41,736 nucleotides of DNA from a virus (IMGVR_UViG_3300022937_002035:1-41736); one strand, 5' to 3'; counted from the first letter of the stretch, positions 5,857-24,669 are shown. Program-made: numbers and translations. Notes: a model not told the origin generated them from the letters alone.

Positions 5857-7320
5857 ATGGATCAGCTTGCTGATGTCGGTGCAGAGAGGGCAGTTCTAGC
5901 TGGACTCTTTGCATATGGCTTTGAATCTTACGTTGAAATCAGTGACTTCCTTACGCATAGCAGCTTCGCTAACCGTAACAACCAAGTCATTTACAAGTGC
6001 ATTGAGAAGGTGCTGGAGAATGATGCTGTAGCTGACATTCCAGCGATTCTTTCTGCTGCCGAACAACTTAACCTCACAGAAGTAGTCAAGACTGAACATG
6101 AGCTAGACTATATTCGTGACCTTATGGACTATCCCGTAAAGAGGGATAACGTCCTGCATTTTGCTGCACAGGTTAAAAAGTTTGAGTTTGCCCGTAACGC
6201 AAAACGTATTGCTAAAAAGATAGATAAAGATATTGACTCCATAGTTGGTGATGAGAGCATTGATGATATTATCAATCTCGTAGAAATGCCACTTATGGAT
6301 TTCTTGCGTGACGATGAGTCAGGTCAAAAACCAGAAATGCTTGGCGATGATCTGGACGAATACATCGAATTTCTAATCGAAAACAAATGTGACCAAATAG
6401 GACTGTCCAGTGGATTTCCCAGATTTGATTCCGTCATTGGTGGTGGCTTACGTCGCAAGTGTGTAGATCTCGTATCCGCAAGGCCCGGAGTGGGCAAGTC
6501 TGTCTTTGCAGATAATGTGGCTCTGCATAACGCTAGGAATGGAATTCCTGTACTTATGCTCGATACTGAGATGAGCAAAGAGGATCATCTCAACAGAGTC
6601 CTCGCTAATATCAGTGGTGTTCCTATTCAGGATATTGCAACCGGCAAGTTCTCAGAAGATGATGAGAAAGCTATTGCCGTTAAAAATGCGGCAGAAGAAA
6701 TTAGAGATATCCCCTACACCTATGTCAGTGTAGCTGGTGCCCAGTTTGAAACCATTATGAATATCATCAAGCGATGGATTCTTCGTGAGGTGGGTCAGGA
6801 CGAGAACGGCAGAACCAACGACTGTCTTGTTGTGTACGATTATCTCAAACTCATGTCGTCGTCCGGTATTACAAACAATCTCCAAGAGTATCAGGCTCTT
6901 GGTTTTCAAATCACAGAATTACATAACTTAACAGTCAAGTATGACTTCCCATGTTTATCATTTGTTCAGTTGAACCGTGATGGTATCACAAAGGAATCTA
7001 CGGACGCTGTGAGCGGTTCTGACCGCATCATTTGGTTGTGTACGTCTTTCTCTATATTTAAATTAAAGTCCGCAGAGGAACTAGCAGAGGACGGTCCAAA
7101 CGGTGGTAACAGGAAAGTTGTAACGTTAAAAGCTCGTCACGGTGCTGGATTGCTTGACGGTAATTATATTAACATGAACATGGTTGGCGAACATGCACAA
7201 CTGCTTGAGTTGCGAACCAGAGATGAAATGAGATCCTCACCCGATGGTGATGTGATCGAAGGGGCAGACGCACCCTTCGATGAAGACGAAGATTACGAAG
7301 TACCTTTTTATACCGAATAG
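5857..7320 (+). CDS. DnaB/gp41-type replicative helicase
   Basis: 487 residues. An N-terminal helical domain (ERAVLAGLFAYGFESYVEI, DnaB-N-like, with VIYKCIEKVLEN) leads to a RecA-type motor: Walker A ARPGVGKS near residue 210 and Walker B CLVVYDYLKLM near 325. SFVQLNRDG and a late DGNYINMNM segment follow the DnaB C-terminal pattern. It unwinds the fork 5'-3' as a hexamer and should pair with the primase encoded downstream at 8834. The ATG is 1 nt after the zinc-ribbon gene. The tail is strongly acidic. Confidence 0.92.
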   Translation: MDQLADVGAERAVLAGLFAYGFESYVEISDFLTHSSFANRNNQVIYKCIEKVLENDAVADIPAILSAAEQLNLTEVVKTEHELDYIRDLMDYPVKRDNVLHFAAQVKKFEFARNAKRIAKKIDKDIDSIVGDESIDDIINLVEMPLMDFLRDDESGQKPEMLGDDLDEYIEFLIENKCDQIGLSSGFPRFDSVIGGGLRRKCVDLVSARPGVGKSVFADNVALHNARNGIPVLMLDTEMSKEDHLNRVLANISGVPIQDIATGKFSEDDEKAIAVKNAAEEIRDIPYTYVSVAGAQFETIMNIIKRWILREVGQDENGRTNDCLVVYDYLKLMSSSGITNNLQEYQALGFQITELHNLTVKYDFPCLSFVQLNRDGITKESTDAVSGSDRIIWLCTSFSIFKLKSAEELAEDGPNGGNRKVVTLKARHGAGLLDGNYINMNMVGEHAQLLELRTRDEMRSSPDGDVIEGADAPFDEDEDYEVPFYTE

Positions 7321-8406: not shown

Positions 8407-8870
8407 TGATTAAATATGCAGCGATACCCAGTCCGCTGTTTGGTTACAAACAAATGTTCGACGCAGTTGAACTTGTAGATGAAGCGTTTGCTGCTGGGTA
8501 CTTTAAGAACCATCTAGAAGAAATTGACTGTGCATGGATAGCACTTGATGGTGACAAGGTTATAGGATGGGCAGCGGTTGGAGACTGTATGTTACGCTGT
8601 ATCGCAGTACATCCAGACTATCGAGGTCAAGGTATCGGCAAAAGATTAACAGAAGAAAGATTAAAATATTTAGGAGACTGCGAACAAGTAGTCTCTTACG
8701 CTTGGGTTAGGCCAGATGGTCGATGCATGTCGTGTAAAAACCTAGAAAATTTCGGTTTTGAACTTGCAAAAGAGCTTCCTGAATACTATAATAATACTAG
8801 AAGCAACTGTAAATACTGTGGGAGTAATTGTACATGTGTAGCAAGGCTGTACGTCAAAACACAACCTTAG
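8406..8870 (+). CDS. GNAT acetyltransferase with C-terminal Cys cluster
   Basis: 154 residues. The acetyl-CoA loop RGQGIG is at 73-78, in VHPDYRGQGIGKRL, after strands DCAWIALDGDKVIGWAAV. The C-terminus adds an unusual Cys-rich end, C135-x2-C138-x3-C142-x-C144, which could bind zinc. The substrate is unknown; phage GNATs acetylate small molecules, tRNA or proteins. Its 3' end contains the promoter at 8764-8792 and overlaps the primase gene by 37 nt, so this short stretch carries coding, promoter and ribosome-binding information together. Confidence 0.8.
   Translation: MIKYAAIPSPLFGYKQMFDAVELVDEAFAAGYFKNHLEEIDCAWIALDGDKVIGWAAVGDCMLRCIAVHPDYRGQGIGKRLTEERLKYLGDCEQVVSYAWVRPDGRCMSCKNLENFGFELAKELPEYYNNTRSNCKYCGSNCTCVARLYVKTQP
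8764..8792 (+). promoter_or_regulatory. Sigma-70-like promoter, family member 2 (primase)
   Basis: TTGCAA (8764-8769), a 17-bp spacer, then TATAAT (8787-8792) followed by A. It is inside the 3' end of the GNAT gene and about 40 bp upstream of the primase ATG, so it is well placed to drive the primase and the genes after it. Same -35 and spacing as the sites at 2786 and 17047. Confidence 0.6.
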
Positions 8871-9907
8871 ACCTGAACAAAGTACGAGAGATTATCTTCC
8901 AAGATATTTATAAGTTGTTGGATAGTTTTAATCTAGAGTACACTCAGGACGCAGAAAACATTTTTATGAAGTGTCCTATTCATGAGGGCAGCGACAACCC
9001 ATTCGGTGTATCTATCGCACTTGACAAACAGGTGTGGCGTTGCTGGACTCGTGGGTGTCACGATCACTATAGTTGTAATATTTGGGGGTTCATCAAAGGT
9101 TGTCTGCAAACAGACTCATTCTCTGATGCACTCAAATATGTTTGTAAATTGTATGATGTAAACGGAGCATCCAAAAATGGTAGCAGTGGAAATACTAATA
9201 ATCCTAAGCGTGATAATGATTTTAGCGAGCTTGTACGCCAAATCAAAGGATCTAGAAGAACAGATAGAAGCTCATGTGAAGTGGAGCATGTTACAAGACC
9301 AAAAACTGAGTCGTGCCCTTCACCGTATTTCATTGCTAGAGGATACGAACCGGAAACGTTGCGATTTTTTGGAGTTCGAGAAACACCAAGTGATACCAGA
9401 GGCATCCTTCGACGTAGGGCAATCATACCCATCTGGGACAATGTCGGAATATACTGCGGGTATATCGGGCGAGCTACCGTTCCATATATCGAACCCAAAT
9501 ACATTTTCAGTAAAGGAATCAGGAAGTCAGATTACTTATACAACTACCACAACGCTATCTCCGAATTGGCTAGACCATCAATGGATACACATCTCACACT
9601 CTTCTTAGTTGAGGGGCAGGGCGATGTTTGGAGACTATGGGAGTGCGGAGTTAAAAATGCAGTCGGATTATTTGGTAAAGACGTATCATCACAACAGCGT
9701 AAGCTATTGCTTAACAGTGGTGCGACCAGACTTGTTGTCCTCACTGACAACGACCAAGCAGGGCGAGAGTCGAAGATCAAGATCAAACGGGAACTAGGAA
9801 GATTATTTAAGTTGGTGTTTCCCAAGATGCACACAAAAGACTTGGGAAGTATGATGTGTGAACAAATTGATAAGAATATTTTACAGGATTTAAGAGGGTA
9901 TTATTAA
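8834..9907 (+). CDS. DnaG-type DNA primase
   Basis: 357 residues from ATG 8834. I prefer this start to the TTG at 8828 because GGGAG lies about 9 nt upstream of the ATG. The zinc-binding domain is C47-x2-H50-x19-C70-x4-C75. A low-complexity linker follows (about 112-155). Then comes the catalytic part: YFIARGYEPETLRFFGV, a TOPRIM glutamate at E260 (FLVEGQGD), and D305/D307 (LTDNDQAGRES). It makes RNA primers for the DnaB-type helicase. It is shorter than bacterial DnaG and has no obvious helicase-binding C-terminal domain. The linker DNA carries a second plausible ORF in another frame (9177-9608). Confidence 0.88.
   Translation: MCSKAVRQNTTLDLNKVREIIFQDIYKLLDSFNLEYTQDAENIFMKCPIHEGSDNPFGVSIALDKQVWRCWTRGCHDHYSCNIWGFIKGCLQTDSFSDALKYVCKLYDVNGASKNGSSGNTNNPKRDNDFSELVRQIKGSRRTDRSSCEVEHVTRPKTESCPSPYFIARGYEPETLRFFGVRETPSDTRGILRRRAIIPIWDNVGIYCGYIGRATVPYIEPKYIFSKGIRKSDYLYNYHNAISELARPSMDTHLTLFLVEGQGDVWRLWECGVKNAVGLFGKDVSSQQRKLLLNSGATRLVVLTDNDQAGRESKIKIKRELGRLFKLVFPKMHTKDLGSMMCEQIDKNILQDLRGYY
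9177..9608 (+). CDS. Candidate overlapping gene inside primase: membrane-anchored coiled-coil protein
   Basis: 143 codons in the +1 frame relative to the primase. The ATG has GGAG at 9164-9167, nine bases upstream, a good ribosome-binding site. The predicted protein has a clean N-terminal membrane helix (VAVEILIILSVIMILASLYA), then an amphipathic coiled-coil-like segment (KSKDLEEQIEAHVKWSMLQD) and a polar Ser/Thr-rich tail. The membrane and coiled-coil part lies over the primase's non-conserved linker, where overprinting is easiest. It has the general layout of an inner-membrane spanin or anchor, but there is no partner gene, so the function is open. It may still be a chance ORF. Confidence 0.4.
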   Translation: MVAVEILIILSVIMILASLYAKSKDLEEQIEAHVKWSMLQDQKLSRALHRISLLEDTNRKRCDFLEFEKHQVIPEASFDVGQSYPSGTMSEYTAGISGELPFHISNPNTFSVKESGSQITYTTTTTLSPNWLDHQWIHISHSS

Positions 9908-10686
9908 TGATTCTAGGAATCTCAGGACGCAAACAAGCAGGCAAGAATACTACTGCAAACATTCTACATGGCATTGTGCTTAAACGAGAAGGTTTTATCA
10001 AAGATTGGAACATCGGTTCTAATGGTGAACTTCTTGTAGATAGCGATGGTTGGGGCGAATTTGACGTTACAAGAAAAGATCCTGAGTTTGTAACTTGGGC
10101 AGACAATAATATGTGGCCCTTTGTAAAGATCTACAGCTTTGCAGATGAGCTTAAACGTATTTGTATTGAATTGTTTGATATTCCATTTGAGTGTGTGTAC
10201 GGAACAGATGAGCAGAAGAATCAAGTGCAAAAGCATCTGCTGTGGGAAAACATGCCGGGAGTAGTAACAGATGAAGATGACTGGAAGGGTCTATGGCAGG
10301 AGGAAAATCTTTACTATCACGCCGCAGGCCCAATGACCGCCCGTGAATTTATGCAGTATTTTGGTACAGAAGTTATGCGTAAAATGTACGAACCAATCTG
10401 GGTTAATTCCTGCATTAAAAAAATACAAAGAGAACAATCAGCACTGGCAATTATTGCAGACGTTCGCTTCCCTAACGAGGCGAAAGCTATTGAACAAGCC
10501 GGTGGCAAGGTTGTGAGATTAACACGCGAGGTTCACGAGGATAACCATCCGAGCGAAGTAGCTCTGGATGACTACCCCTTCACAGATTATATTGACAATA
10601 AAATTGAAAGCATCGACGTTCTGATGGTGAAGGTTAAACAATTTTACCGTAGCCTAAAGGAACAAAATGTTAGTAACCTATGTTAG
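9907..10686 (+). CDS. Deoxynucleoside monophosphate kinase
   Basis: 259 residues resembling T4 gp1. The P-loop GRKQAGKNT (7-15, K13) starts the protein. Core segments are YSFADELKRICIELF, MTAREFMQYFGTEVMRKM and LAIIADVRFPNEAKAI, all typical of the dNMP kinase family that phosphorylates dTMP, dGMP and modified dCMP. It overlaps the primase stop by 1 nt and the nuclease gene by 20 nt. With NrdB, MazG and GMP reductase it completes a phage-controlled dNTP supply set. Substrate range cannot be read; the family's link to modified bases is worth noting. Confidence 0.88.
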   Translation: MILGISGRKQAGKNTTANILHGIVLKREGFIKDWNIGSNGELLVDSDGWGEFDVTRKDPEFVTWADNNMWPFVKIYSFADELKRICIELFDIPFECVYGTDEQKNQVQKHLLWENMPGVVTDEDDWKGLWQEENLYYHAAGPMTAREFMQYFGTEVMRKMYEPIWVNSCIKKIQREQSALAIIADVRFPNEAKAIEQAGGKVVRLTREVHEDNHPSEVALDDYPFTDYIDNKIESIDVLMVKVKQFYRSLKEQNVSNLC

Positions 10687-11707
10687 AAGTTCATCATATA
10701 ACAATTATGATTTTTGCCAAATGCAGTATTTCCTGACCTACAATCTAGGTTGGAGAGGTTCTAGCGGTAAACGAGCAGATATGGGAACTATGGCCCACAA
10801 GGTCATGGAGATTCTTGCTGGACTTAAAAAGTTTCAGCAGGACAATCCTCGTAGAAAATGGCTAGAAATTGAAGATGATAAGTGTGGAAAAGTCAGAGTT
10901 AGCAAGGATGATCTCTACACTGACGCTTTTGTAGACGAATTGATCTCCAGATCCATCAAGGATTACGGCGAAACATCTGCCCATAAATTCTACCGTAAAG
11001 AGCGAAAGGAGGTTAGAGACACGGTTTATACGTTTCTTACCCATAATGGCGGTCAATTTGACCCTAGACAAAGAAATGTATACTATCCAGAGCCGCATTT
11101 CGACCTGCCAATCGAGGAAGATTGGGCAAAGTTCGACTTCGTAGACGCAAACGGCAATACCCAAAAAGGGCAGTTGGCTATCAAGGGCACGATTGACCTC
11201 GTTACACTTCTCGACGAAGATACGATTGAGGTAGTTGACTGGAAAAGCGGTCGTCGCCTGAATTGGGCAAGTGGTGAAGAAAAAACATACGAAAAAATGA
11301 TGAATGACCCACAATTATTGCTCTATTTCTACGCCATGTCCAAGATGTTTCCCGATTTCCCCAATAGAATTATGAGTATTTTCTTCTATAAAGATACTGA
11401 AGGGGAACCAGATCCTACACCGTATAGCTTCTGTTTTACCAAGGAAGATGAAGATAGATTTCTAGGTATGCTGAAAAAGCGGGTAGAAGAAATTAGACAG
11501 AATACCAAGCCATCCGTACTAGATCCTACGAGAACTGACTTTAGATGTAAATATCTGTGTCATTTTTGTAAGAACAGCTTTGAAGGCGAGACGGATAATA
11601 TGTGTATAACTATAGAGAAGGAGTTAGTTCAGCTTGGGATGGACGAGGTGGTGAAGAAACGCACTGCACCCGACTTTAATATTGGATTCTACGAGGCACC
11701 CGGATAA
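10667..11707 (+). CDS. RecB/Cas4-like PD-(D/E)XK exonuclease with iron-sulfur-type cysteines
   Basis: 346 residues. The N-terminal SSYNNYDFCQMQYFL carries C17, and four more cysteines cluster near the end (C294, C298, C301, C313). One Cys at the N-terminus plus a C-terminal cluster is the AddB/Cas4-type Fe-S arrangement that clasps the nuclease domain. The catalytic core is GTIDLVTLLDEDTIEVVDWKSG with the GxxD...DxK motif, followed by the QxxxY-like helix DPQLLLYFYAM. Such enzymes resect or trim DNA during recombination. It overlaps the dNMP kinase gene by 20 nt. Confidence 0.85.
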   Translation: MLVTYVRSSSYNNYDFCQMQYFLTYNLGWRGSSGKRADMGTMAHKVMEILAGLKKFQQDNPRRKWLEIEDDKCGKVRVSKDDLYTDAFVDELISRSIKDYGETSAHKFYRKERKEVRDTVYTFLTHNGGQFDPRQRNVYYPEPHFDLPIEEDWAKFDFVDANGNTQKGQLAIKGTIDLVTLLDEDTIEVVDWKSGRRLNWASGEEKTYEKMMNDPQLLLYFYAMSKMFPDFPNRIMSIFFYKDTEGEPDPTPYSFCFTKEDEDRFLGMLKKRVEEIRQNTKPSVLDPTRTDFRCKYLCHFCKNSFEGETDNMCITIEKELVQLGMDEVVKKRTAPDFNIGFYEAPG

Positions 11708-13198: not shown

Positions 13199-14158
13199 AT
13201 GCCCCTACCAGAAAAGCGTGACGGTGAAAAGCCCGTAGAATTTATTGCTCGCTGTATGAGTGATCCAAAAATTAACAAAGAATATCCAGATCAGAAGCAG
13301 CGTACAGCGGTCTGTATGAGCAAAGCCTGTGATGGGATGTCTCATATCGAAGCTGCTGACTTCCAGATCAACTTTGAAGAATATGGATTTACAGAAGAGC
13401 TTACAGAAGATAACTGGTACTGCCCTGCGGAAGCAGAGTACGAAACAGATATTGACTGGAATGAGCCTACAGAAGAGTGGGACATCTCAGAAGCCAAGCC
13501 CGGACTCTGGGAAAATATTCGTAAGAAAAAAGAACGCGAAGGTAAAAACTACAAGCCAGCAAAGAAGGGCGACAAAGATCGACCTGATCCAGAGGCTTGG
13601 AAGAAAGCCCAGTCGCTATGGAAGCAGACCGTTGCTGAATACGAAGAAGGTCAAATGCAACGTGAGCAACTGATGAAGATGCACCATCAGCTTATGGAAA
13701 TCGAAGAATACCTAGAAGGCGTAAAGTTTGAAGATTGGACTAAAGATATGATCTCTAAAGCAGAGATTTATATTCAGAACATTTATGATTTTGTTGAAGC
13801 TAATAAAGCAGAGGCCAACTTTAAATACGAAGATCCTAAGACCGGTGAAGTTTATACCTATAAACGTAAAGGTATCTACAAGAAAGATGGTCGCGTTCTT
13901 GTTCCTGCTCGTGCTGCGGAATATCAAGGTCGCAAGGTTCAGCTTGGTAAACCTTTCCGTACACCGAAAGGACCAAAGAAGTTCAGTGTCTACGTAAAGA
14001 ATGACAAAGGCAACGTTGTGAAAGTCAACTTTGGCGATCCTAACATGAAGATCAAGAAGTCTGATCCTGCTCGTCGCAAATCGTTCCGAGCTAGACATAA
14101 CTGTGATAATCCCGGTCCTCGTCACAAAGCTCGATACTGGAGTTGCCGCAAATGGTAA
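13199..14158 (+). CDS. Modular conserved phage protein (three short conserved modules)
   Basis: 319 residues built from short modules joined by acidic linkers. The N-terminus has RDGEKPVEFIARCMSD and QRTAVCMSKA, a Cys-containing motif often found at the ends of phage proteins. The middle has GLWENIRKKKEREG and KKGDKDRPDPEAWKKAQ, which I associate with DUF5872. Helical segments with acidic residues follow. The C-terminus has FGDPNMKIKKSDPARRKSF and CDNPGPRHKARYWSCRKW, which I associate with DUF6321. DUF names are from memory. Similar modules accompany head or assembly genes in other phages. Preceded by a strong SD (AGGAG). Confidence 0.6.
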   Translation: MPLPEKRDGEKPVEFIARCMSDPKINKEYPDQKQRTAVCMSKACDGMSHIEAADFQINFEEYGFTEELTEDNWYCPAEAEYETDIDWNEPTEEWDISEAKPGLWENIRKKKEREGKNYKPAKKGDKDRPDPEAWKKAQSLWKQTVAEYEEGQMQREQLMKMHHQLMEIEEYLEGVKFEDWTKDMISKAEIYIQNIYDFVEANKAEANFKYEDPKTGEVYTYKRKGIYKKDGRVLVPARAAEYQGRKVQLGKPFRTPKGPKKFSVYVKNDKGNVVKVNFGDPNMKIKKSDPARRKSFRARHNCDNPGPRHKARYWSCRKW

Positions 14159-14712
14159 GGTACACAAGGAACTTTACAGATCATTCATCAAAGGATTTTA
14201 TCAAAGTATTTCCAAAGCTGCTTGAGAAAAGGGAGCACCCTATCAACTTCCTAGAAATTGGATGCTTTGAAGGTAGAACATCTAGGTGGATCATAGAGAA
14301 TATGTTAACCCATCCTGACGACACACTTGTTTGTGTCGATTGGTGGAAAGATCAAAAACTCTACGATCTTTTCCTAGAAAACATGAGTGGTCTTGAAAGT
14401 AAATTTCTTTCGCTTAGAGGAAAATCAGAAGATATTCTTCCAACCTTAGAAAGCAACTCCTTTCATGGTATCTATGTGGATGGTAGTCATGAAGCGGTAG
14501 ATGTAATGAGTGACGCCATCCAATCATTCAGGCTTATTAAAAAGGGTTGTGTAATTTTGTTTGACGATTACCTATGGGAGAATAATAATGGTGGCCAAAG
14601 GCACAAGATGCCAAAAGTGGCAATTGATTGTTTTGTTGAAATGACTAAAGGGTGGGCTACAGAAGTTGTTTTTAAAAATTATAGGCTTGCAGTGAGGAAA
14701 AATGGAAGATAA
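14152..14712 (+). CDS. SAM-dependent methyltransferase (Methyltransf_24-like)
   Basis: 186 residues from ATG 14152, which overlaps the upstream stop; an upstream TTG at 14143 is less likely. Motif I is FLEIGCFEGRTSRWI, the acidic end of strand 2 is VCVDWW, and GIYVDGSHEAVDVMSD plus VILFDDY follow. This is the class I fold of small methyltransferases usually encoded with glycosyltransferases. The probable substrate is a sugar or glycoconjugate. Together with the next gene it starts a small glycan island ahead of dnaE; a second relative lies at 27153. Confidence 0.78.
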   Translation: MVRYTRNFTDHSSKDFIKVFPKLLEKREHPINFLEIGCFEGRTSRWIIENMLTHPDDTLVCVDWWKDQKLYDLFLENMSGLESKFLSLRGKSEDILPTLESNSFHGIYVDGSHEAVDVMSDAIQSFRLIKKGCVILFDDYLWENNNGGQRHKMPKVAIDCFVEMTKGWATEVVFKNYRLAVRKNGR

Positions 14713-16663
14713 GGATTTTTCTAAATGTCAATGTCCACAGGCGGGATGGTGCGATCTTCTTAAAAAAGAAATGACCGCCACCCCTCCTAATTGGCAGTGG
14801 TGTCAAGGACTGACAGAAGAAGAAAGAAAAAAATATCACGACAAGGTTAACGGCAAAGTGAGAACTATACGTAAAGCTATAAAAGCAGGTTCAGTAGACG
14901 TTGTAAACTTTGTTGATGATATTCCTACCCCAAAAAGCGATTACGCAGTTTGTGTAATTCCAGCAAATGACTCAGCAATGAATCTCTTGGAAGCTACACG
15001 TAGTAATATTCAAAACTATGCAAAAAAATGCAATGCCGATTACGTTGAATTGATAGGAGATCAAGTACCAGAGTTTCCCATATCAAATAAATTTAGATTA
15101 CAACAAGTCACTCAAAGATATAAGAAGACACTCTTCGTTGATTGTGACATTGTAATAAAAGAGTCTGCACCCGATATATTCAAAATAACGCCAAATAATA
15201 AGATTTCTGCTTTTGATGAATTTGAAGTCTATCTAAAAAACCATAGGGGTGTTGACTGGATCAATGAAACCATGCATTTGATCTCTAAGAAACTTGGGGT
15301 TTCATATAGAAAAAACACAATGCTAAACAGTGGGTTTATGGTTATCCCCAAATCTTGCTCTCATTATTATTCTCAGCCTGAGATTCCCTACCCACGCCAT
15401 TGGTGCTTTGACCAAATGTGGTTGACACTAAACACTCCCGCAAAAAAAATTAATAAATTGGGCAGAGAATGGAATAATGTTTTTGATGGGGCAGATTTTT
15501 GGAAACGATTTGAAGAAAGTTATGTTACACATTTTAACAATATGCAGGATGAGGAATCATTTCATCCAGAGTCTAGAAAAACTGTACTGTCTTCACTTTC
15601 AAAAAACACAGATATTACAGAGTTTGAATTAAAGACTAGATCAATTCAAAAAGTAGAAGAGTATGATCTTCCAGAAAACATGGACGAAGTAGAAATTGTA
15701 TCTGTTCATTTCAATCCTACTAAGTCCGACAGTCTAAGAAGAACAAACGATTTATTTTTAAAGGGATTAAAGAATGTCGCCCCGTTCGTCAAGTGTTATG
15801 AAATTTTATTTGACGATCAGGAGCAAGAAATAGAAGGCTCAATAATCATCAGAGGCTCCCTAGAAAAAAATTGTTTGTGGCAAAAAGAAGCATTACTTAA
15901 TGTTGCAATAAATAGCGTTGGCGAATCAAAAAAATATTTTATTTGGCTAGACCATGATATAATGTTTCTGAAAAAGGATTGGCTCAAGGAAGCTATAAAT
16001 AAACTTAGTTCAGGATTTGATTTCTGCCAATTATTTTCAGAACTTGGTTGGGCCGATAAAACTGGAGACGTGCATCTTTCTAAAGTCGGAAGACTTGCGA
16101 AATTGAGAGATTGCGAGAGGTATGATGAATGGGATAATGAGGACATTCACTTCAATGCTCATGGGAACCCCGGACTTTGTTGGGCCGCTAGGGTTGACTC
16201 TCTAAAAAGAATGGGAGACAATCCATTTCCAAACGCTGTTGTTGGCAGTGGAGACGAATACTTTTGTATGGGCGTAACCAGAACAACAAAAGAAGGTATG
16301 AGTATGATGAGTGGACTCATGAGGAATCTTATAGCGAGTGCTTACCTCAGAGAAAACAAACTCAAATCGTTGGAAGGTGTAACCCAGCTTCAAAAATATA
16401 TAGATTTCATGACTGAAAAAGTAAATGATATGTCTAAGTATTTGTTTAATTCGACGTTTATTGATGGGGCAGTTTACCATTTCTGGCATGGTGACAACAA
16501 AAACAGGCAATATGCATCAAGACACAGCATCATACAAAAGTGTGATCTAAACTTATACGAGGATGTTTTCATAAACGAAGATGGTATCTTTGAGTTGGTA
16601 GAGAATAAATATGAAGCATCAAAAAGATTTTATAAGTTTTTCCTAGATAGAAAAGAGGATTAG
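14702..16663 (+). CDS. Large two-domain glycosyltransferase-like protein with N-terminal Cys motif
   Basis: 653 residues. It begins with a Cys motif (CQCPQAGWCDLLKKEM, then C34) that looks metal-binding. A first GT-A-like domain follows (about 80-300) with the DxD-type KTLFVDCDIV and NSGFMVIPKS. A second GT-A-like domain (about 325-560) starts VEIVSVHFNPTKSD, contains YFIWLDHDIMFL, and later GDEYFCMG. The two domains may add successive sugars. The C-terminal 90 residues (YHFWHGDNKNRQYASRH) resemble the end of phage DUF-type glycosyltransferases. Overlaps the methyltransferase gene by 11 nt. Confidence 0.7.
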   Translation: MEDKDFSKCQCPQAGWCDLLKKEMTATPPNWQWCQGLTEEERKKYHDKVNGKVRTIRKAIKAGSVDVVNFVDDIPTPKSDYAVCVIPANDSAMNLLEATRSNIQNYAKKCNADYVELIGDQVPEFPISNKFRLQQVTQRYKKTLFVDCDIVIKESAPDIFKITPNNKISAFDEFEVYLKNHRGVDWINETMHLISKKLGVSYRKNTMLNSGFMVIPKSCSHYYSQPEIPYPRHWCFDQMWLTLNTPAKKINKLGREWNNVFDGADFWKRFEESYVTHFNNMQDEESFHPESRKTVLSSLSKNTDITEFELKTRSIQKVEEYDLPENMDEVEIVSVHFNPTKSDSLRRTNDLFLKGLKNVAPFVKCYEILFDDQEQEIEGSIIIRGSLEKNCLWQKEALLNVAINSVGESKKYFIWLDHDIMFLKKDWLKEAINKLSSGFDFCQLFSELGWADKTGDVHLSKVGRLAKLRDCERYDEWDNEDIHFNAHGNPGLCWAARVDSLKRMGDNPFPNAVVGSGDEYFCMGVTRTTKEGMSMMSGLMRNLIASAYLRENKLKSLEGVTQLQKYIDFMTEKVNDMSKYLFNSTFIDGAVYHFWHGDNKNRQYASRHSIIQKCDLNLYEDVFINEDGIFELVENKYEASKRFYKFFLDRKED

Positions 16664-17118: not shown

Positions 17119-18750
17119 ATGAAGTGGTTCCCGCTACTGAACTACACCCACTATTCGCTACAATACGGCTTTTCCAAGCCAAATGAGCTTGCTAAGAAAT
17201 GTAAGCAGAATTCTTACCCTGCATGTGGCATCGCTGATTACAAAACAATCAGTGGTGCTGTATCTTTCTACAAAGCCTGCATCGACAATGATATCAAACC
17301 TATCATTGGCTGTTCTTTCGATGGCTTTTCTCTCTTTGCCAAAAACCATGCAGGATGGCTGAACCTCATCGAGATTGTTTCTACAATTGATGCAGATGGT
17401 AATGAGGATCGAGGCACTATGGTTCGCCTAGCAGGACAGGGCAACCTTATTTGCGTTGCCAAGTCTGAGGCTCTGTCTCCCGTCACAGGTGATGACTTCT
17501 ACATATGGTCTGACTCTTTTGCTAAGAGTCATTATACAAACAAAGACCAAGCAGAGTTGCACAGGATTGTACTTTGCGGTAAGCTAAAAACCACACTGAA
17601 CAAAGTAAGAAAGAACGGACTATCAGAAACAGATAGTCAGTTTGGTGTATTCTTTGATTCAGATGATTTCTATATTAAAGACAAACTAGAGTCATCCAAG
17701 CTGGTTGTAGACGATCCACGCATGGAAGACTTTGAGGGAATATTTAATAAGTGTGATAACTATAACATCCTGAGCAAGCCAATGTTGCCAGTCTTTGAGA
17801 CTCCAAATGGACAGTCAGAAAAGGACTACTTGCGGGAACTAGCAAGAGATGGCTGGAAAAAACTTCTTGGTGATAAAGTCACCGGCCAAGAGGAACGTCA
17901 GGTATACGGTGACCGTTTTCAAAAAGAGTTTTCCGTTATTGAAAAAGCAAATCTCTTTGGGTATTTCCTCATCGTTTGGGACATTTTAAATTGGTGTCGC
18001 GAGCAGGGCTGGATGGTTGGACCCGGACGAGGCTCTGCTGCTGGATGTCTCATTTCTTATCTAATTGGTATCACACAGATTGACCCTATTGAATTTGATC
18101 TACTATTTGAACGTTTCTACAATGAGGGTCGTAATACAGATGACCACATCTCTTTACCTGATATTGATATGGATGTTCCGGGCAATAAACGTGATGAGAT
18201 TATCGCTAGACTCAAAGAGAAGTACGGTGCTGACAACGTTAGTCAGATGCTCACGTTTGGTAGACTGCAAGGGCGAAGTGCGATGAAAGAGGTTCTTCGC
18301 GTGAATGATGCTTGTGGCTTTGCCGAAATGAACGAGATCACCAAGTACATTCCAGACGAAGCTGCCATCTCTGACCAGCTAAGTGCTATGGACGAAGAAG
18401 ATCGCTCTATCATCCGCTGGACACTACAGAATCGTGCAGACGACCTTATGGACTACTGTCATCTCGATGATGAGGGTAGGTTGCAGGGAGACTTTGCAGA
18501 ATACTTCCAGCAGGCTATTGATATTGAAGGCACATTTAAGACACAGGGAAAACACGCTGCTGGAGTTGTTATCTCTGCCGAACCACTATACAAAGTTTGC
18601 CCTATGGTAAACCAAAAGAGTGGCGGCGAGAAGATTGCAGGATTGGAAATGAACGACCTAGAAGCACTAGGTCACGTTAAGTTTGACCTTCTTGGGTTAA
18701 ACCTTTTGGACAAGTTGATGTTTATCAAGGAGCTAATTAATGAATCGTGA
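17119..18750 (+). CDS. dnaE: DNA polymerase III alpha, N-terminal half (PHP + palm), split gene
   Basis: 543 residues from ATG 17119, preferred to TTG 17104 because AAGGA lies upstream. The first 65 residues are a PHP domain (THYSLQYGFSKPNELAKK) whose metal-binding His pair and TDH motif are lost (now NYTHY and ADY), so it is probably inactive. The palm holds GPGRGSAAG, the catalytic PDIDMD (D348, D350) and D523 in HVKFDLLGL. All three catalytic aspartates are thus in this half. It stops 20 residues after D523, inside what is one chain in bacteria. Fingers, beta-binding and OB parts are on the ORF at 20046. Overlaps the exonuclease gene by 11 nt. Confidence 0.92.
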   Translation: MKWFPLLNYTHYSLQYGFSKPNELAKKCKQNSYPACGIADYKTISGAVSFYKACIDNDIKPIIGCSFDGFSLFAKNHAGWLNLIEIVSTIDADGNEDRGTMVRLAGQGNLICVAKSEALSPVTGDDFYIWSDSFAKSHYTNKDQAELHRIVLCGKLKTTLNKVRKNGLSETDSQFGVFFDSDDFYIKDKLESSKLVVDDPRMEDFEGIFNKCDNYNILSKPMLPVFETPNGQSEKDYLRELARDGWKKLLGDKVTGQEERQVYGDRFQKEFSVIEKANLFGYFLIVWDILNWCREQGWMVGPGRGSAAGCLISYLIGITQIDPIEFDLLFERFYNEGRNTDDHISLPDIDMDVPGNKRDEIIARLKEKYGADNVSQMLTFGRLQGRSAMKEVLRVNDACGFAEMNEITKYIPDEAAISDQLSAMDEEDRSIIRWTLQNRADDLMDYCHLDDEGRLQGDFAEYFQQAIDIEGTFKTQGKHAAGVVISAEPLYKVCPMVNQKSGGEKIAGLEMNDLEALGHVKFDLLGLNLLDKLMFIKELINES

Positions 18751-19414
18751 TATTATTGTATTTGACTTTGAGACTGGTGGGCGTAATCCCCATAAGTGTC
18801 AACCTACACAGATTGCTGCTATCGCACTTGACGGTAGGAACTTTAGACTCAAGGGACAATTCAATAGTCTCATGCGTCCCATTATCGACGACGACAAAGC
18901 AATCAAAGCTGGCGTTGACCCGCTAGAAGAAGGTGCTCTGAAAGTAACCGGTCAGACCAGAGAGAAACTTGCCAAGGCACCACTTCCAAAAGGTGTGTGG
19001 AAAAAGTTCTGTGCGTTTGTAGATAAATATAATTGGAAAGGTACATCATTCTTTGCACCTATTCCATGTGGATTTAATATCCTTGGTTATGATATGCACA
19101 TCGTAAATAGATTGTGTAAAGAATACGGCCCATACGATGATAAACGTCAGTGCCAGAAACTCTTTCATCAAATTTATAAAATTGACGTAATGGACGATGT
19201 GTGGCTATGGACAGAAGGAGACCCAAATGTTAAGTCTATTAGTATGGATAGCTTGCGAGAAAGAATGGGACTGTCCAGTGAAAACGCTCACGACGCTCTC
19301 CAAGACGTTAAGGATACAGCAAACATCTGGATCAAACTACAAAAGTCCAGACGGGCAGTCTACCGGAACATGAAGTTTGAAAAGGCGTTTGCTGATGGAA
19401 AACTCTTCGTATAA
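18740..19414 (+). CDS. DnaQ-like 3'-5' exonuclease (proofreading)
   Basis: 224 residues of the DEDDh superfamily. Exo I is FDFETGG (D9, E11), Exo II is NILGYDMHIVNRL, and Exo III is ENAHDALQDVKDT with the His and Asp. It starts within the last codons of the dnaE N-half, so the two are translationally coupled. With the polymerase PHP domain apparently dead, this protein is the natural proofreader, equivalent to bacterial epsilon. There is no clear clamp- or polymerase-binding tail beyond the basic C-terminus. Confidence 0.87.
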   Translation: MNRDIIVFDFETGGRNPHKCQPTQIAAIALDGRNFRLKGQFNSLMRPIIDDDKAIKAGVDPLEEGALKVTGQTREKLAKAPLPKGVWKKFCAFVDKYNWKGTSFFAPIPCGFNILGYDMHIVNRLCKEYGPYDDKRQCQKLFHQIYKIDVMDDVWLWTEGDPNVKSISMDSLRERMGLSSENAHDALQDVKDTANIWIKLQKSRRAVYRNMKFEKAFADGKLFV

Positions 19415-19784
19415 AGTTTGCAAGACTTGCAAACAAAAGAAACGGGATGATGAATTTGTAAAAGCTGATGGTAAACATCGCTCAACTAGAAATAGGTGCA
19501 AAGTTTGTCATAAAGAGCAAGCAGATATAAGAAGAAAACTCCGTAAAGAAAATCCACCTCCAGAAGCCGGTATTTGCCAGATCTGTCAAAATCATACTGA
19601 TAAGTGGGTTTTAGATCACTGCCATACAAACATGTCTTTTAGGGGTTATATTTGTGCTTCATGCAATTCTGGAATCGGACTACTGCACGATGATCCAGAG
19701 GTATTAGAAAAAGCAGTGAAATATTTAAATAGAGACAAACATAAGTCATTACTTAGGAGGTTATTATCATTTTTAGAAAAGTAG
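19395..19784 (+). CDS. Endonuclease VII-like HNH nuclease
   Basis: 129 residues from ATG 19395, inside the exonuclease 3' end (20-nt overlap). The N-terminal zinc ribbon has C9/C12 and C35/C38. The catalytic part has C61/C64, DHCH at 74-77, RGYICASCNSGIG (C87, C90, N91) and LLHDDPEVLEKAVKYL, matching T4 endonuclease VII-type proteins. Free-standing versions are often mobile in phages. It lies between the two halves of the split dnaE, the classic setting for nuclease-driven gene splitting, but it could also resolve DNA branches. The family is firm; the role is inferred. Confidence 0.85.
   Translation: MENSSYKVCKTCKQKKRDDEFVKADGKHRSTRNRCKVCHKEQADIRRKLRKENPPPEAGICQICQNHTDKWVLDHCHTNMSFRGYICASCNSGIGLLHDDPEVLEKAVKYLNRDKHKSLLRRLLSFLEK
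19755..19771 (+). promoter_or_regulatory. Ribosome binding site deciding an AUU start
   Basis: A perfect AGGAGG (19755-19760) is followed 8 nt later by ATT at 19769. No ATG, GTG or TTG occurs in that frame nearby, and the frame downstream encodes a convincing small protein. This makes ATT the most likely start codon. Confidence 0.55.
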
Positions 19785-20023
19785 AAAACAAAGGGCGGTA
19801 CAAAACCGCACAGGGGTATTATTGGCACATTCGAAACAAGGAAATTGACTACTTGTTTACTGACAGTGCTTTGCAAGAAGCGGGGAAGCGTGCCCAGAAA
19901 AATCCAGAAGATATTCCAGAACCAGAACAAAACCTAGATGGTAGCACATTTTTTAGTATGGGCTTTCTTACCGGAGTAACCCTATCTGTTGCAGGTTATT
20001 TTGTAACAAAACTTTTTTGGTAA
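19769..20023 (+). CDS. Small protein with C-terminal membrane helix, AUU start
   Basis: 84 codons, missed by standard start codon rules. The product begins (M)FRKVENKGRYKTAQGYYWHI, a polar head with RNKEIDYLFTDSALQEAGKR, then a Pro/Glu/Gln-rich linker, and ends in a clear membrane helix (FFSMGFLTGVTLSVAGYFV) with TKLFW at the end. I recall short proteins of this shape in cyanophages, function unknown. It overlaps the endonuclease by 16 nt and ends 22 nt before the dnaE C-half. The ATT start is rare in bacteria (infC is the known example) and normally keeps expression low. Confidence 0.68.
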   Translation: MFRKVENKGRYKTAQGYYWHIRNKEIDYLFTDSALQEAGKRAQKNPEDIPEPEQNLDGSTFFSMGFLTGVTLSVAGYFVTKLFW

Positions 20024-20045
20024 ACCTATTATTATTGAGATTTAA

Positions 20046-21611
20046 ATGATTGACAGAAATGACCCAAAGGCTTGGGCCTTGTACAAAGATGGATTGACAA
20101 AAGGACTATTTCAGCTTGAGAGTAACCTTGGTCGTGCATGGTCCAAAAGAGTTGCACCGGAAAACCTTGAAGAACTAGCGGCATTGATCGCTATCATCAG
20201 GCCCGGAACGTTGAAAGCGGTTAGCGAAGGCAAGTCTATGACTCAGCACTTCGTAGACCGTAAACATAAGAGAGAAGATGTTGTCTATCTTGATCCTAGT
20301 CTAGAAGAAATTCTAAAGACTACACATGGCGTACTTGTATACCAAGAACAAGCTATGCTCATCGCGGTGAAAGCTGCGGGATTCAACGAAATGGAAGCAG
20401 ACAATCTTCGTAAGGCTATTGGTAAAAAGAAAGCGGCTCTCATGGCTGAGATTCGTGGACAATTCATCGAGGGCTGTAAAAGGGTTGGACTTGTAGATGA
20501 AGACACTGCAAACCAGATTTTTGACTGGATTGAAAAATCGTCTCGTTATTCGTTCAACAAGTCCCATGCCGTTGCCTATGCACTGGATTCGTACTGGTCT
20601 GCGTACTACAAGGCGAATTACACAAAAGAGTTCTTCTTGTCCTACCTATACTATGCGAATGAAAAGCAAGATCCTCATCAGGAAATCTATGAGCTAGTAA
20701 ACGAAGCTAAACTATTCAATATACTAGTAAAGACTCCTAAACTAAGTAGGTTCTCTGAGAAGTTTGCCATCTTTGGTGATGACATTCAGTTTGGAGTTCG
20801 GGACGTTAAAGGTCTTACAGGTGTCACTGGCGAGAAGGTCTTGAAGGCTATTGGTGATGCGACAGAAGAATTGGAAAAACCTGCCGACGAGTTTACTTGG
20901 ATGGATGTGCTTATTTACATCGCTCCCAAGATTACATCTACGGCTTTCAAGGCACTTGCTGGCATTGGATTCTTTTCCACAAAGAAAACTGGTGTCACCA
21001 GAAATCAAGCCCTGTACGAATATCTCATCTGGCGTGAACTAACAAAGGCAGAAGTTAAATGGGTAACAGAGAATTACCCTAAAAAGAAGTGGTCAAAACT
21101 ACAGGATTGTTTCGAAGATCTGTCTCCTACCAAGAAGATGGGCGGTGGTTGCAGTAATGCCAATCGTAGTCAGATTGTGTACGGTGAGATTGAGATGCTA
21201 AAAAATCCACCATACGATATGTCTGATGAGCCGCAATGGGTTATCGCAGAAGAAGTCAAACTCTTGGGTTGCCCAGTGTCGTATCAGTATACAGATGCTA
21301 TCGACGCATCAATCGCCAATACTACATGTCAAGAAGTAGCCAACGGTAAGTTTGGTAAGGATATTTGCATTGTAGCCAATGTCCAACGTGTAGCTAATCA
21401 CAAGATCAATAAGAAGGATAGCAAGCAAAAGGGCCGGATCATGTCGTTCCTGACAATCGAAGATGCCACTTGCTCTCTAGACAATGTTATCGTTTTCCCA
21501 GACGCAAGAGATAAGTACCAGTTTGTTTTGTATGAAGGTGCCAACCTTATGCTCTGCGGTGAGATTGAAAAAGATAATTCATTTATTGTCGATAAAATTC
21601 ACGAAATCTAA
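20046..21611 (+). CDS. dnaE: DNA polymerase III alpha, C-terminal half (fingers to OB fold), split gene
   Basis: 521 residues. It resumes exactly where the N-half stops: DDPKAWALYKDG-type text appears as NDPKAWALYKDGLTKGLFQL, then ALIAIIRPGTLKA, GVLVYQEQAMLIAVKAAGF and FNKSHAVAYALDSYWSAYYK, all conserved Pol III alpha fingers. A helix-hairpin-helix and beta-binding region follows, then an OB-like end. It has no catalytic Asp of its own. Halves of 543 and 521 residues give a total close to bacterial DnaE (about 1160). Neither half carries intein motifs, so the chains must assemble without splicing. Confidence 0.92.
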   Translation: MIDRNDPKAWALYKDGLTKGLFQLESNLGRAWSKRVAPENLEELAALIAIIRPGTLKAVSEGKSMTQHFVDRKHKREDVVYLDPSLEEILKTTHGVLVYQEQAMLIAVKAAGFNEMEADNLRKAIGKKKAALMAEIRGQFIEGCKRVGLVDEDTANQIFDWIEKSSRYSFNKSHAVAYALDSYWSAYYKANYTKEFFLSYLYYANEKQDPHQEIYELVNEAKLFNILVKTPKLSRFSEKFAIFGDDIQFGVRDVKGLTGVTGEKVLKAIGDATEELEKPADEFTWMDVLIYIAPKITSTAFKALAGIGFFSTKKTGVTRNQALYEYLIWRELTKAEVKWVTENYPKKKWSKLQDCFEDLSPTKKMGGGCSNANRSQIVYGEIEMLKNPPYDMSDEPQWVIAEEVKLLGCPVSYQYTDAIDASIANTTCQEVANGKFGKDICIVANVQRVANHKINKKDSKQKGRIMSFLTIEDATCSLDNVIVFPDARDKYQFVLYEGANLMLCGEIEKDNSFIVDKIHEI

Positions 21612-21651: not shown

Positions 21652-21969
21652 ATGAATCACTGTATATTTACAGGATATTTACTGTTTGACCCAAACGTGG
21701 GTTACGAATCAAGTCCATCGGTTTGCACTTTTAAGCTGGTGACATACGAGTACACAAGAAACAGACGTGGTGAAAAGAAGCGTTACCCAACGACTGTAAC
21801 CTTCCAAGCCTTTGATAGTGGTGCAGATGCCATCGCTAAACTAGGAAAGAAGGGGATGAAAATGACCGTACACGCTTCTGCCAGAAACGGTGTTATGAAA
21901 ACCGAATCTGCGGACGATATTATTTTTAGAGTTAATCAATTCGACTTTGGATGTTTGGACAAGGAATAA
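21652..21969 (+). CDS. ssb: Single-stranded DNA-binding protein (OB fold)
   Basis: 105 residues. MNHCIFTGYLLFDPNVGY, CTFKLVTYEYTRNRRGEK then YPTTVTFQAFDSGADAIAKL and MKMTVHASARNG follow the strand order of bacterial-type SSB OB folds. It lacks the usual long acidic C-terminal tail and ends FDFGCLDKE, so it may not recruit partners the way E. coli SSB does. It coats ssDNA at the phage fork. It has its own promoter and SD directly upstream and is 1 nt ahead of the first gene of the large glycan cassette. Confidence 0.82.
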   Translation: MNHCIFTGYLLFDPNVGYESSPSVCTFKLVTYEYTRNRRGEKKRYPTTVTFQAFDSGADAIAKLGKKGMKMTVHASARNGVMKTESADDIIFRVNQFDFGCLDKE

Positions 21970-21970
21970 A

Positions 21971-23659
21971 ATGAGAAAGAAACGAATTCTGTTCTGTAGC
22001 GAAGCTACTTTCCTGAACACTGGATACGCGACTTATACTCGTGAAATTTTGAATTACTTGCACTCTACTGGAAAGTATGAGCTTGCAGAACTGGCAGCTT
22101 ACGGTCAACGAAATGACCCAAGGGCAGCAAATATTCCTTGGAAGTTTTACGGTGTTCAGCCAAACACAGACTGCGAACCAAAAGCCAGTCAGGAAGAACT
22201 TCAGGCATTTGGGGCATCTGCTACAAATCAATTTGGAGAATGGATCTTTGAGCATGTTTGCTTGGATTTCTTGCCTGACATCGTATGCGATATTCGAGAC
22301 TTTTGGATGCTAGACTTTGCAGAGAGAAGTCCTTTTCGGCCCTATTTCGATTGGGTAATCATGCCAACGGTCGATGCTAGACCACAAGCACGACAGTGGA
22401 TTTCAACATATGCTGGTGCTGATGCTTGTCTGACATACTCTGATTGGGCCGGAACTGTACTTGCAGATCAGTCTGGTGGTAAGATCAAGTATCATGGATC
22501 TTCACCACCTTCTGCCCATCCAGCATATCACCCCATTGAGGACAAGAAAGCACACAAGCTATCTATGGGGATTGACCCAGAATATAAAATCATTGGAACT
22601 GTTATGCGTAATCAACGACGTAAACTGTATCCAGATTTGTTTGAAGCATTTAGGAAATTCTTAGATAAGTCGGAAAGCAAGAAGTATTATCTTTATTGTC
22701 ATACTTCTTATCCTGATCTTGGTTGGGATATTCCAGAGTTGATCTTGCAAAACAACCTGTCTTCACATGTCTTGTTTACCTATATCTGTCCTGAGACAAA
22801 AAAGCCATTCCCATCATTGTTTAAGGGTGCCGTGGCACAGTCTCCATATACTGGAAAATGGGGCTCTACTCTATCAAACGTAAAGAATGGTGCATCTTAC
22901 GAGGATCTTTCTCGAATCCAGAACCTCTTTGACCTTTACACTCAATATGCCAACTGTGAAGGTTTTGGACTGCCCTATGTAGAAGCTGCCGCCTGTGGTG
23001 TCCCAGTGTGCGGAACTGACTACTCTGCTATGGAGAGTGAGATTCGTAAACTGCAAGGTCATCCTATTAAACCGGCTGCACTTTATAAAGAATTAGAGAC
23101 TGGTTGTCTTCGTGCTGTTCCAGATAATGATGCAGCAGCGGAATATTTCCGTCACTTCTTTGAAGATAAAACTGATGAGGAACGTGCCGCAGAAGGTGAG
23201 CGGACAAGGAAGAACTTTGAAAAGCACTTTCAGTGGCACCTTAGTGGAAACAAGTGGGAGCGAATCTTTGACGCTACTCCTATTAGACCTATTGAGCAAA
23301 CTTGGGCTTCGCCTCCAAGGATTCTAGACCCCGCAGGTAAGATTCCAGATGACCAACTGGAGAATGTAAGTCCAACTATGCAGGCTCAGTACCTTATCCA
23401 AAATGTTCTGAGAGACCCATCAAGGTTAGGAACATTTTTTGAATCTAGAATGATTAGAGACTTAACTTACAAATCGTCTACGGGTTCAACTGGCGGTATG
23501 TATTTTAATGAATCTAGTCAGGCATTTGACGGTACAAATCAGAGACAAGGTTTTGATTTTCATGTTGCTTACAATTCTATGGTAGCACAAAGGCACAGAA
23601 TCAATAGCTGGGAACAAAAACGAATCGAGGTGTTGAAAAATAAAGGAGTTATTAAATGA
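21971..23659 (+). CDS. Glycosyltransferase, GT4/GT-B type, large
   Basis: 562 residues from ATG 21971. The N-terminal Rossmann part starts RILFCSEATFLNTGYATYTR. The C-terminal part has IIGTVMRNQRRKLYPDLFEA and the donor-binding GT4 motif CEGFGLPYVEAAACGVPV. A C-terminal extension of about 130 residues (after WERIFDATP) is unlike standard GT4 enzymes. It transfers a sugar from a nucleotide donor; acceptor unknown. It opens the glycan cassette and overlaps the epimerase gene by 4 nt. Confidence 0.85.
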   Translation: MRKKRILFCSEATFLNTGYATYTREILNYLHSTGKYELAELAAYGQRNDPRAANIPWKFYGVQPNTDCEPKASQEELQAFGASATNQFGEWIFEHVCLDFLPDIVCDIRDFWMLDFAERSPFRPYFDWVIMPTVDARPQARQWISTYAGADACLTYSDWAGTVLADQSGGKIKYHGSSPPSAHPAYHPIEDKKAHKLSMGIDPEYKIIGTVMRNQRRKLYPDLFEAFRKFLDKSESKKYYLYCHTSYPDLGWDIPELILQNNLSSHVLFTYICPETKKPFPSLFKGAVAQSPYTGKWGSTLSNVKNGASYEDLSRIQNLFDLYTQYANCEGFGLPYVEAAACGVPVCGTDYSAMESEIRKLQGHPIKPAALYKELETGCLRAVPDNDAAAEYFRHFFEDKTDEERAAEGERTRKNFEKHFQWHLSGNKWERIFDATPIRPIEQTWASPPRILDPAGKIPDDQLENVSPTMQAQYLIQNVLRDPSRLGTFFESRMIRDLTYKSSTGSTGGMYFNESSQAFDGTNQRQGFDFHVAYNSMVAQRHRINSWEQKRIEVLKNKGVIK

Positions 23660-24669
23660 GAACAGTCGTAGTGACAGGATGTGCGGGATTACTGGGTTCG
23701 CACTTTAGCCGACATCTTTTAAGTAAAGGTTATAAGGTTATTGGAATTGATGACCTTAGCGGTGGATACTCAGACTATTTACCACAAGCACCTCCAGAGC
23801 AATTTGAATTCTGGCCCATTGATCTTTCTGATAAGGTCATGACAAAGACACTCTCTCATATCTTTTCAACCAATAAACCAGTGGCCTGCTTTCATTTTGC
23901 CGCATACGCAGCAGAGGGATTGTCGCCCTTTATTAGACATTATAATTATACAAATAACATTTTATCAAGTGTTAATATTATTAATCAATGTATCGAGCAT
24001 GATACGAAGATGATCTTTACATCTTCTATGGCTGTATACGGAAATCAATTTCCTCCATTCACAGAAAGAATGGGTCCAGCACCAATCGACCCCTACGGCG
24101 TTGCAAAGTATGCTACTGAACTGGACATTAAAATTGCCCACGAGCAACACGGTCTACAGTACACTATTATTCGCCCACATAATATTGTTGGCATTTATCA
24201 GAATATATGGGACAAGTACCGCAACGTTGCAGGCATTTTTATTCGTCGCGTCCTCGCTGGCGAACCGATGTTGATTTATGGCGATGGATACCAAACTCGT
24301 GCGTTCTCAGACGTTAAGTATTACATGAAGCCGTTTGAAACCCTGATTGACAGATGTAATGGTTACACATTTAATCTTGGTGCAGACAAGGCGTACACCA
24401 TCAACGAGCTTGCAGACACAGTTCAGCGTATAGCTTGGAGGCATGGGTTTGAAGCAGAGAAGCAACATGTAGAGGGTCGTCACGAAGCTAAACATGCACA
24501 CTGCGACCATACGTTGGCAAAAGATCCTAGAAACCTTAATTTTCACGATGGTACAAATCTTGAGAAATTGATTGACGAAATGTTCCACTGGGCCATGCGT
24601 CAACCAGAACGAGAGCAAAAGAGAATGGAATACGAAGTCGAGAAGGGAATTTATGACTACTGGAAATGA
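23656..24669 (+). CDS. NAD-dependent sugar-nucleotide epimerase/dehydratase (GalE-like)
   Basis: 337 residues of the extended SDR family. The NAD loop is VTGCAGLLGSH (7-17), the catalytic Ser/Tyr/Lys region is FTSSMAVYGNQ and DPYGVAKYATEL, and RPHNIVGIYQNIWDK plus RAFSDVKYYMKPF are typical of UDP-hexose 4-epimerases. It probably interconverts a nucleotide sugar for the neighbouring glycosyltransferases. The precise substrate is unknown. Overlaps the next gene by 17 nt. Confidence 0.85.
   Translation: MRTVVVTGCAGLLGSHFSRHLLSKGYKVIGIDDLSGGYSDYLPQAPPEQFEFWPIDLSDKVMTKTLSHIFSTNKPVACFHFAAYAAEGLSPFIRHYNYTNNILSSVNIINQCIEHDTKMIFTSSMAVYGNQFPPFTERMGPAPIDPYGVAKYATELDIKIAHEQHGLQYTIIRPHNIVGIYQNIWDKYRNVAGIFIRRVLAGEPMLIYGDGYQTRAFSDVKYYMKPFETLIDRCNGYTFNLGADKAYTINELADTVQRIAWRHGFEAEKQHVEGRHEAKHAHCDHTLAKDPRNLNFHDGTNLEKLIDEMFHWAMRQPEREQKRMEYEVEKGIYDYWK

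What the first reader, a model, noticed from the sequence alone, without database searches (positions are those of the whole stretch)
17119..21611. Pol III alpha split into two ORFs with three genes in the gap
Seen: N-half (PHP and palm with D348, D350, D523) ends 20 residues after the last catalytic Asp; C-half resumes with the adjoining fingers text. Between them are an exonuclease, an endonuclease VII-like nuclease and a small membrane protein. No intein motifs are present. Established: some T4-like phages have gene 43 split in association with homing nucleases, and cyanobacterial DnaE is split at a different site with inteins. Inference: nuclease-driven splitting produced a two-chain family C polymerase with its proofreader encoded inside the split.
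Basis: partly seen in the sequence, partly recalled or inferred. Interest (0 to 1): 0.75.

Follow-up and report, generated by a model that had tools for sequence, protein, structure and literature searches.

The report
Phage DNA polymerase naturally in two pieces
A large group of uncultured viruses of bacteria makes its DNA-copying enzyme as two separate proteins, cut at the joint between the enzyme's palm and fingers, with the gene for its error-correcting nuclease sitting between the two halves; this arrangement is conserved and old, not an assembly error.

Summary
A full-size Pol III alpha (DnaE) is encoded as an N-half (17119-18750: PHP, palm, thumb, all three catalytic Asp) and a C-half (20046-21611: fingers, OB), cut in the palm-fingers linker (E. 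coli residues ~574/588). A DnaQ-like exonuclease, an endonuclease VII-like gene and a small membrane ORF lie between. It is neither artefact nor recent: 118 of 120 distinct related phage loci show the same cut and the order N-exo-C. There is no intein, intron or read-through at the cut; both halves and exo are under strong purifying selection, and each half is predicted to fold as the matching part of Pol III alpha. Twelve relatives of 119-173 kb carry no family A or B polymerase. The only unsplit relatives have exo upstream of whole dnaE. Best reading: an obligate two-chain C-family replicase translated in series with its proofreader. An independent split at the same joint occurs in cultured mycobacteriophages (Fowlmouth, MrMiyagi, Cuke). 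Association and activity of the halves are untested.

The parts
17119..18750 (+). dnaE-N: PHP (metal ligands partly lost), palm, thumb; 543 aa; catalytic D348, D350, D523 (codons at 18160, 18166, 18685)
   Evidence: Pfam PHP and PF07733; catalytic Asp verified and invariant in 33 relatives; AF2 pLDDT 90.4, matches E. coli/Taq Pol III alpha with TMq 0.77/0.75
18740..19414 (+). exo: DnaQ-like DEDDh 3'-5' exonuclease, likely proofreader; overlaps the end of dnaE-N by 11 nt
   Evidence: RNase_T, PHROG 'DNA polymerase exonuclease subunit'; D-x-E, D, H-x4-D residues invariant in 8 relatives; between N and C in 118 of 118 split loci
19395..19784 (+). endonuclease VII-like gene, optional resident of the exo|C gap
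   Evidence: PF02945 E 1e-14; present in 20 of 118 split loci
19769..20023 (+). small ORF with C-terminal hydrophobic stretch; AGGAGG upstream of an ATT codon (ATG in relative L003); optional
   Evidence: no Pfam hit
20046..21611 (+). dnaE-C: fingers, following region and OB; 521 aa
   Evidence: PF17657 E 7e-42; AF2 pLDDT 90.8, matches Pol III alpha chains
21652..21969 (+). SSB-like gene following dnaE-C
   Evidence: PF00436; follows dnaE-C in most relatives
10667..11707 (+). RecB-like exonuclease, the upstream neighbour of dnaE-N in relatives; here separated from it by other genes
   Evidence: PHROG 69 exonuclease; recB-N-small-exo-C-ssb order in relatives
5857..7320 (+). DnaB-like replicative helicase, replication context
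   Evidence: PHROG 19
8828..9907 (+). DNA primase, replication context
   Evidence: PHROG 47

Best explanation
dnaE-N, exo and dnaE-C encode the core replicase of this phage: two chains of a C-family polymerase that must come together non-covalently at the palm-fingers joint, plus the 3'-5' proofreader. Shown: the cut lies in a short linker, nothing catalytic is lost, the same cut and gene order are conserved across a diverse clade, all three genes are under purifying selection, and no other replicative polymerase was detected in large relatives. Inferred: the palm chain (metal ions, nucleotide) and the fingers/OB chain (template, nascent base pair) dock into one active site, and translating N, exo and C in series from overlapping or abutting ORFs keeps them near 1:1:1 and favours assembly. 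Origin, inferred: from an ancestor with exo-dnaE (as in L018/L125), tandem duplication of that unit and complementary loss (first copy keeps N, second keeps exo and C) gives N-exo-C without any homing event; insertion of a small-exo cassette into dnaE is an alternative that cannot yet be told apart.
For: 118 distinct split loci, all N-exo-C, against 2 distinct unsplit loci, both exo-dnaE. C is in any of the three frames relative to N (44/42/32) and is stop-separated from N in 118/118, which argues against read-through or a fixed frameshift. Catalytic and fingers residues invariant. dN/dS 0.05-0.14 for N, 0.02-0.08 for exo, 0.04-0.09 for C against close relatives. N and C pairwise distances correlate at r=0.90. 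Both halves give confident models that match Pol III alpha. No family A or B polymerase and a single PF07733 match in each of 12 records of 119-173 kb, 10 of which have a terminase hit. Unsplit relatives keep small-exo upstream of whole dnaE. A single origin of the split is not rejected (p-AU 0.18). Independent split at the same joint in Fowlmouth/MrMiyagi/Cuke.
Against: No biochemical evidence; no complex of the two halves could be modelled with these tools. The trees leave the base unresolved, and their best topology places the unsplit pair among early split lineages, so re-fusion is not excluded. No trace of the second copies expected from a duplication was sought systematically. Only about half of the C-half starts have a Shine-Dalgarno 4-mer (58 of 115, 40 expected by shuffling). 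Completeness of the large records is not known.
Confidence: 0.85

Rival explanations
1. Nuclease-driven splitting: a homing endonuclease inserted at the palm-fingers joint and broke the gene; exo came with it or later.
For: Endonuclease VII-like, NaeI-like and T5orf172-like genes do occupy the gaps of some loci; relatives carry inteins and a split intein with a free-standing endonuclease elsewhere in dnaE; splits of phage genes with homing endonucleases are known.
Against: Endonuclease VII in 20 of 118 only and always between exo and C; many loci, the early-branching L103 included, have no nuclease gene other than exo in the gap. The constant content is exo, an operon neighbour in unsplit relatives.
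Confidence: 0.15
2. The halves are rejoined: protein trans-splicing, a spliced intron, or programmed frameshifting yields one chain.
For: Split and full inteins occur in dnaE of relatives at other sites; MrMiyagi has a GGGAAAA sequence at its own dnaE junction.
Against: No intein domain on either half; no Rfam match at gathering thresholds in the window or 8 loci; a whole exo gene lies between and C is in any frame relative to N; the C-half opens with its own start codon; Cuke keeps the mycobacteriophage split without the slippery heptamer.
Confidence: 0.03
3. The split state is ancestral in this clade and the unsplit L018/L125 lineage arose by re-fusion.
For: The trees leave L103 and L195 (split) at the base together with L018/L125.
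Against: All outgroup C-family polymerases used are unsplit; a single split clade is not rejected (p-AU 0.18); the fusion would have to be in frame and move exo.
Confidence: 0.2
4. A decaying or non-functional polymerase; the phage uses the host replicase.
For: PHP metal ligands are partly lost in the window lineage.
Against: Strong purifying selection and invariant catalytic residues on both halves; conserved across a diverse clade, with helicase, primase and SSB in the window.
Confidence: 0.02

Closest known systems
Bacterial DnaE / Pol III alpha with DnaQ (epsilon)
   Same: Same domains in the same order, same catalytic residues, separate DEDDh proofreader
   Different: One chain in bacteria; here cut in the palm-fingers linker with the proofreader gene inside
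Minimal split Pol III alpha of group 2.2 jumbo phages (Iyer et al. 2021, PMC7824862)
   Same: A Pol III catalytic module in two proteins in phages
   Different: There minimal, without the other Pol III domains, encoded by distant genes, described as NTP-binding versus Mg/DNA-binding parts, and beside a family B polymerase; here full-size, one operon, cut after the Mg-binding palm, no family B polymerase found
Cyanobacterial split DnaE (trans-splicing split inteins)
   Same: dnaE in two genes
   Different: Joined by inteins at another site; here no intein. Relatives L018 and L092 do have a split intein at a SFN(R/K) site in the fingers
Mycobacteriophages Fowlmouth, MrMiyagi, Cuke DnaE
   Same: Two ORFs cut at the same palm-fingers linker, no intein seen
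   Different: 4-nt ATGA overlap with nothing in between; independent origin (unsplit in relative Indlulamithi)
Split family A polymerase of OM43 phages MEP401/402 (PMC10580990) and split T4-type gene 43 (from memory)
   Same: Phage replicative polymerase in two ORFs with a gene between
   Different: Other polymerase families and cut sites; the inserted gene is not the proofreader
PolC
   Same: DEDDh exonuclease placed inside the polymerase
   Different: A domain of one chain, inserted in PHP (from own knowledge); here a separate gene between palm and fingers

Membership tests
C-family DNA polymerase (DnaE type) | PF07733 catalytic domain with three catalytic Asp | tested here: met
   E 2e-69; D348, D350, D523 invariant
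C-family DNA polymerase (DnaE type) | Fingers domain | tested here: met
   PF17657 E 7e-42 in the second chain
C-family DNA polymerase (DnaE type) | N-terminal PHP domain | tested here: met
   PF02811 E 4e-15; ligands partly lost in the window, HLHSHYS and DHGT kept in L195
C-family DNA polymerase (DnaE type) | Single polypeptide | tested here: not met
   118 of 120 distinct loci split
C-family DNA polymerase (DnaE type) | Polymerase activity | not testable with these tools
   needs biochemistry
DnaQ-like proofreader | RNase_T fold family with DEDDh residues | tested here: met
DnaQ-like proofreader | Physical association with alpha | not testable with these tools
   inferred from gene order only
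Split-intein (trans-spliced) gene | Intein halves at the junction | tested here: not met
   no Hint/intein domain on either half
Homing-endonuclease-split gene | Endonuclease gene consistently at the breakpoint | tested here: not met
   endonuclease VII-like gene in 20 of 118 loci
Jumbo group 2.2 minimal split Pol III alpha | Distant genes, no other Pol III domains, family B polymerase present | tested here: not met
   one operon, PHP and OB present, no PF00136 match in 12 large relatives

The most novel reading that the evidence does not exclude
The core enzyme is an obligate three-chain machine in which the exonuclease, made between the two polymerase chains, bridges or scaffolds them, so that polymerisation and proofreading are assembled (and could be regulated) as one unit in a large, so far uncultured phage clade.
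Probability: 0.2. Interest if true: 0.8.

Novelty: new variant of a known kind. Interest (0 to 1): 0.64.

Why it matters
It is a natural demonstration, kept over large divergence, that a replicative C-family polymerase can be cut between palm and fingers without an intein. It gives ready-made split points for engineering and for trapping assembly intermediates, and makes it testable whether the proofreader helps hold the halves together. It also offers an evolutionary route (duplication and complementary loss around a neighbouring gene) by which an essential enzyme becomes two-chain. No description of this arrangement was found in the paper library searched.

Tried and rejected
Assembly error or pseudogene: rejected by 118 distinct loci and dN/dS. 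Intein, intron or read-through at the junction: rejected. Endonuclease VII as the constant agent: rejected by its patchy presence. A second DnaE in L104 (14110-14622): its reading frame joins a glycosyltransferase-like start to a DnaE fragment at the contig end, probably a chimera; left out. Exo in isolates: only distant hits (Bacteroides phages DAC16-23 and SJC03, ~30%, and Chryseobacterium phage MA9V-3, 24%). Searches of PF02916 (T4 clamp) and PF07068 (gp23) rang in no control genome, so they say nothing. PF00712 (beta clamp) was found in none of the 12 large records although the controls ring. Host assignment: two MAG contigs only (Flavobacteriales, SAR202), too weak. Terminase and UvsX-like proteins gave only distant hits in isolates, so no genus could be named.

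Full report
What is there. The window is a 41.7-kb viral record. 17119-18750 encodes PHP, palm and thumb of a DnaE polymerase with all three catalytic aspartates; 20046-21611 encodes the fingers and a C-terminal OB region. In E. coli numbering the N chain ends at ~574 and the C chain begins at ~588-591; only part of a linker is missing. The gap holds exo (18740-19414, overlapping dnaE-N by 11 nt), an endonuclease VII-like gene (19395-19784) and a small ORF with a hydrophobic tail (19769-20023).

Is it real and how common. Among 120 loci with distinct sequences holding N, exo and C, 118 are split in the order N-exo-C and 2 (L018, L125) have exo upstream of a dnaE that is unsplit at this joint. 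L114 and L126, cut short by contig ends, also show exo before dnaE. The N-exo gap ranges from -13 to 2491 nt and the exo-C gap from -5 to 1276 nt; in 24 loci both gaps are at most 100 nt, so exo is the constant insert. A further small gene (~77-96 aa) lies in the N|exo gap in 55 loci and upstream of exo in the unsplit loci. The endonuclease VII-like gene occurs in 20 loci, all in exo|C; other gaps hold a NaeI-like enzyme, a T5orf172 protein, methyltransferase-like and other genes.

Is it functional. Catalytic residues and fingers motifs are invariant across 33 N and 30 C halves. dN/dS against L002-L005 is 0.05-0.14 (N), 0.02-0.08 (exo) and 0.04-0.09 (C). AlphaFold2 models are confident (mean pLDDT 90.4 and 90.8) and match Pol III alpha structures. 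In 12 relatives of 119-173 kb there is no family A or B polymerase and one PF07733 match each; 10 have a terminase hit. No beta clamp was detected by PF00712.

Can the halves be joined covalently. No intein domain lies on either half, Rfam has no match in the window or in eight loci, the C frame relative to N is 44/42/32 and C is always stop-separated from N. Inteins do occur elsewhere in dnaE of relatives: a full intein at RPG|C in L012 and L092, and a split intein with a free-standing endonuclease at SFN(R/K)|C in L018 and L092. So this family tolerates trans-splicing, but the palm-fingers break does not use it.

Origin. Unsplit order: recB-like - small - exo - (in L114 and L125 a further stretch) - dnaE - ssb. 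Early split order (L103): recB-like - dnaE-N - small - exo - dnaE-C - ssb. Tandem duplication of small-exo-dnaE with complementary loss gives the second order from the first without transposition; insertion of small-exo into dnaE gives the same result. The careful tree leaves the base open, and a single split clade is not rejected (p-AU 0.18).

Independent parallel. In 60 records sampled down the ranking of 1336 phage records with DnaE, one (MrMiyagi) was in two pieces. It, Fowlmouth and Cuke have dnaE in two ORFs cut at the same linker with a 4-nt overlap; Indlulamithi, 69.5% identical in DNA, is unsplit. MrMiyagi has a GGGAAAA sequence at the stop that could allow frameshifting; Cuke lacks it. 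The same joint has thus been cut at least twice, and one case is cultured.

Literature. A minimal Pol III alpha split over two distant genes is described in group 2.2 jumbo phages (PMC7824862) and a split family A polymerase in OM43 phages (PMC10580990). PMC3919608 names intein-split cyanobacterial DnaE and fragmented sequences with frameshifts, no phage case. I found no description of the present arrangement in the papers searched; most subscription papers are not held.

Noticed in passing
L018:8001-12687 and L092:10479-14112: dnaE interrupted at a SFN(R/K) site in the fingers by a split intein with a free-standing 295-aa endonuclease between the halves (NUMOD3 motif in L018), like the 'fractured gene' arrangement; L092's polymerase is therefore in three ORFs.
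   Followed up: partly
L012:10331-12679 and L092:10479-12062: Full intein inserted at RPG|C in the fingers half (HNH_2 match in L012).
   Followed up: partly
L203:2334-5524 (MrMiyagi), L204:484-3719 (Cuke): Cultured mycobacteriophages with DnaE in two ORFs cut at the same palm-fingers linker, 4-nt ATGA overlap; GGGAAAA slippery-like heptamer at the stop in MrMiyagi, absent in Cuke.
   Followed up: yes
window 19755-20023: Strong AGGAGG before an ATT codon that starts the small membrane ORF; relative L003 has ATG there, so either an ATT start or a point change.
   Followed up: partly
window 17119-17420: PHP metal ligands (HLHSHYS, DHGT in L195) are replaced (NYTHYS, DYKT) in the window lineage: likely inactive PHP.
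   Followed up: partly
window 14143-16663 and 21947-39746: Glycosyltransferases, nucleotide-sugar epimerases and methyltransferase-like genes surround the replication genes: probably a glycan-modification island.
   Followed up: no
L202 (VFHP01000007.1, 152,655 bases): A contig binned as a SAR202 MAG carries N-exo-endo-C-ssb (exo 90% identical to the window): probably a phage genome, possible host hint.
   Followed up: no
L104:13900-14622: Reading frame that joins a glycosyltransferase-like start to a DnaE fragment at the contig end; probably an assembly chimera.
   Followed up: partly
L003:7466-7987: NaeI-like restriction endonuclease gene in the exo|C gap.
   Followed up: no
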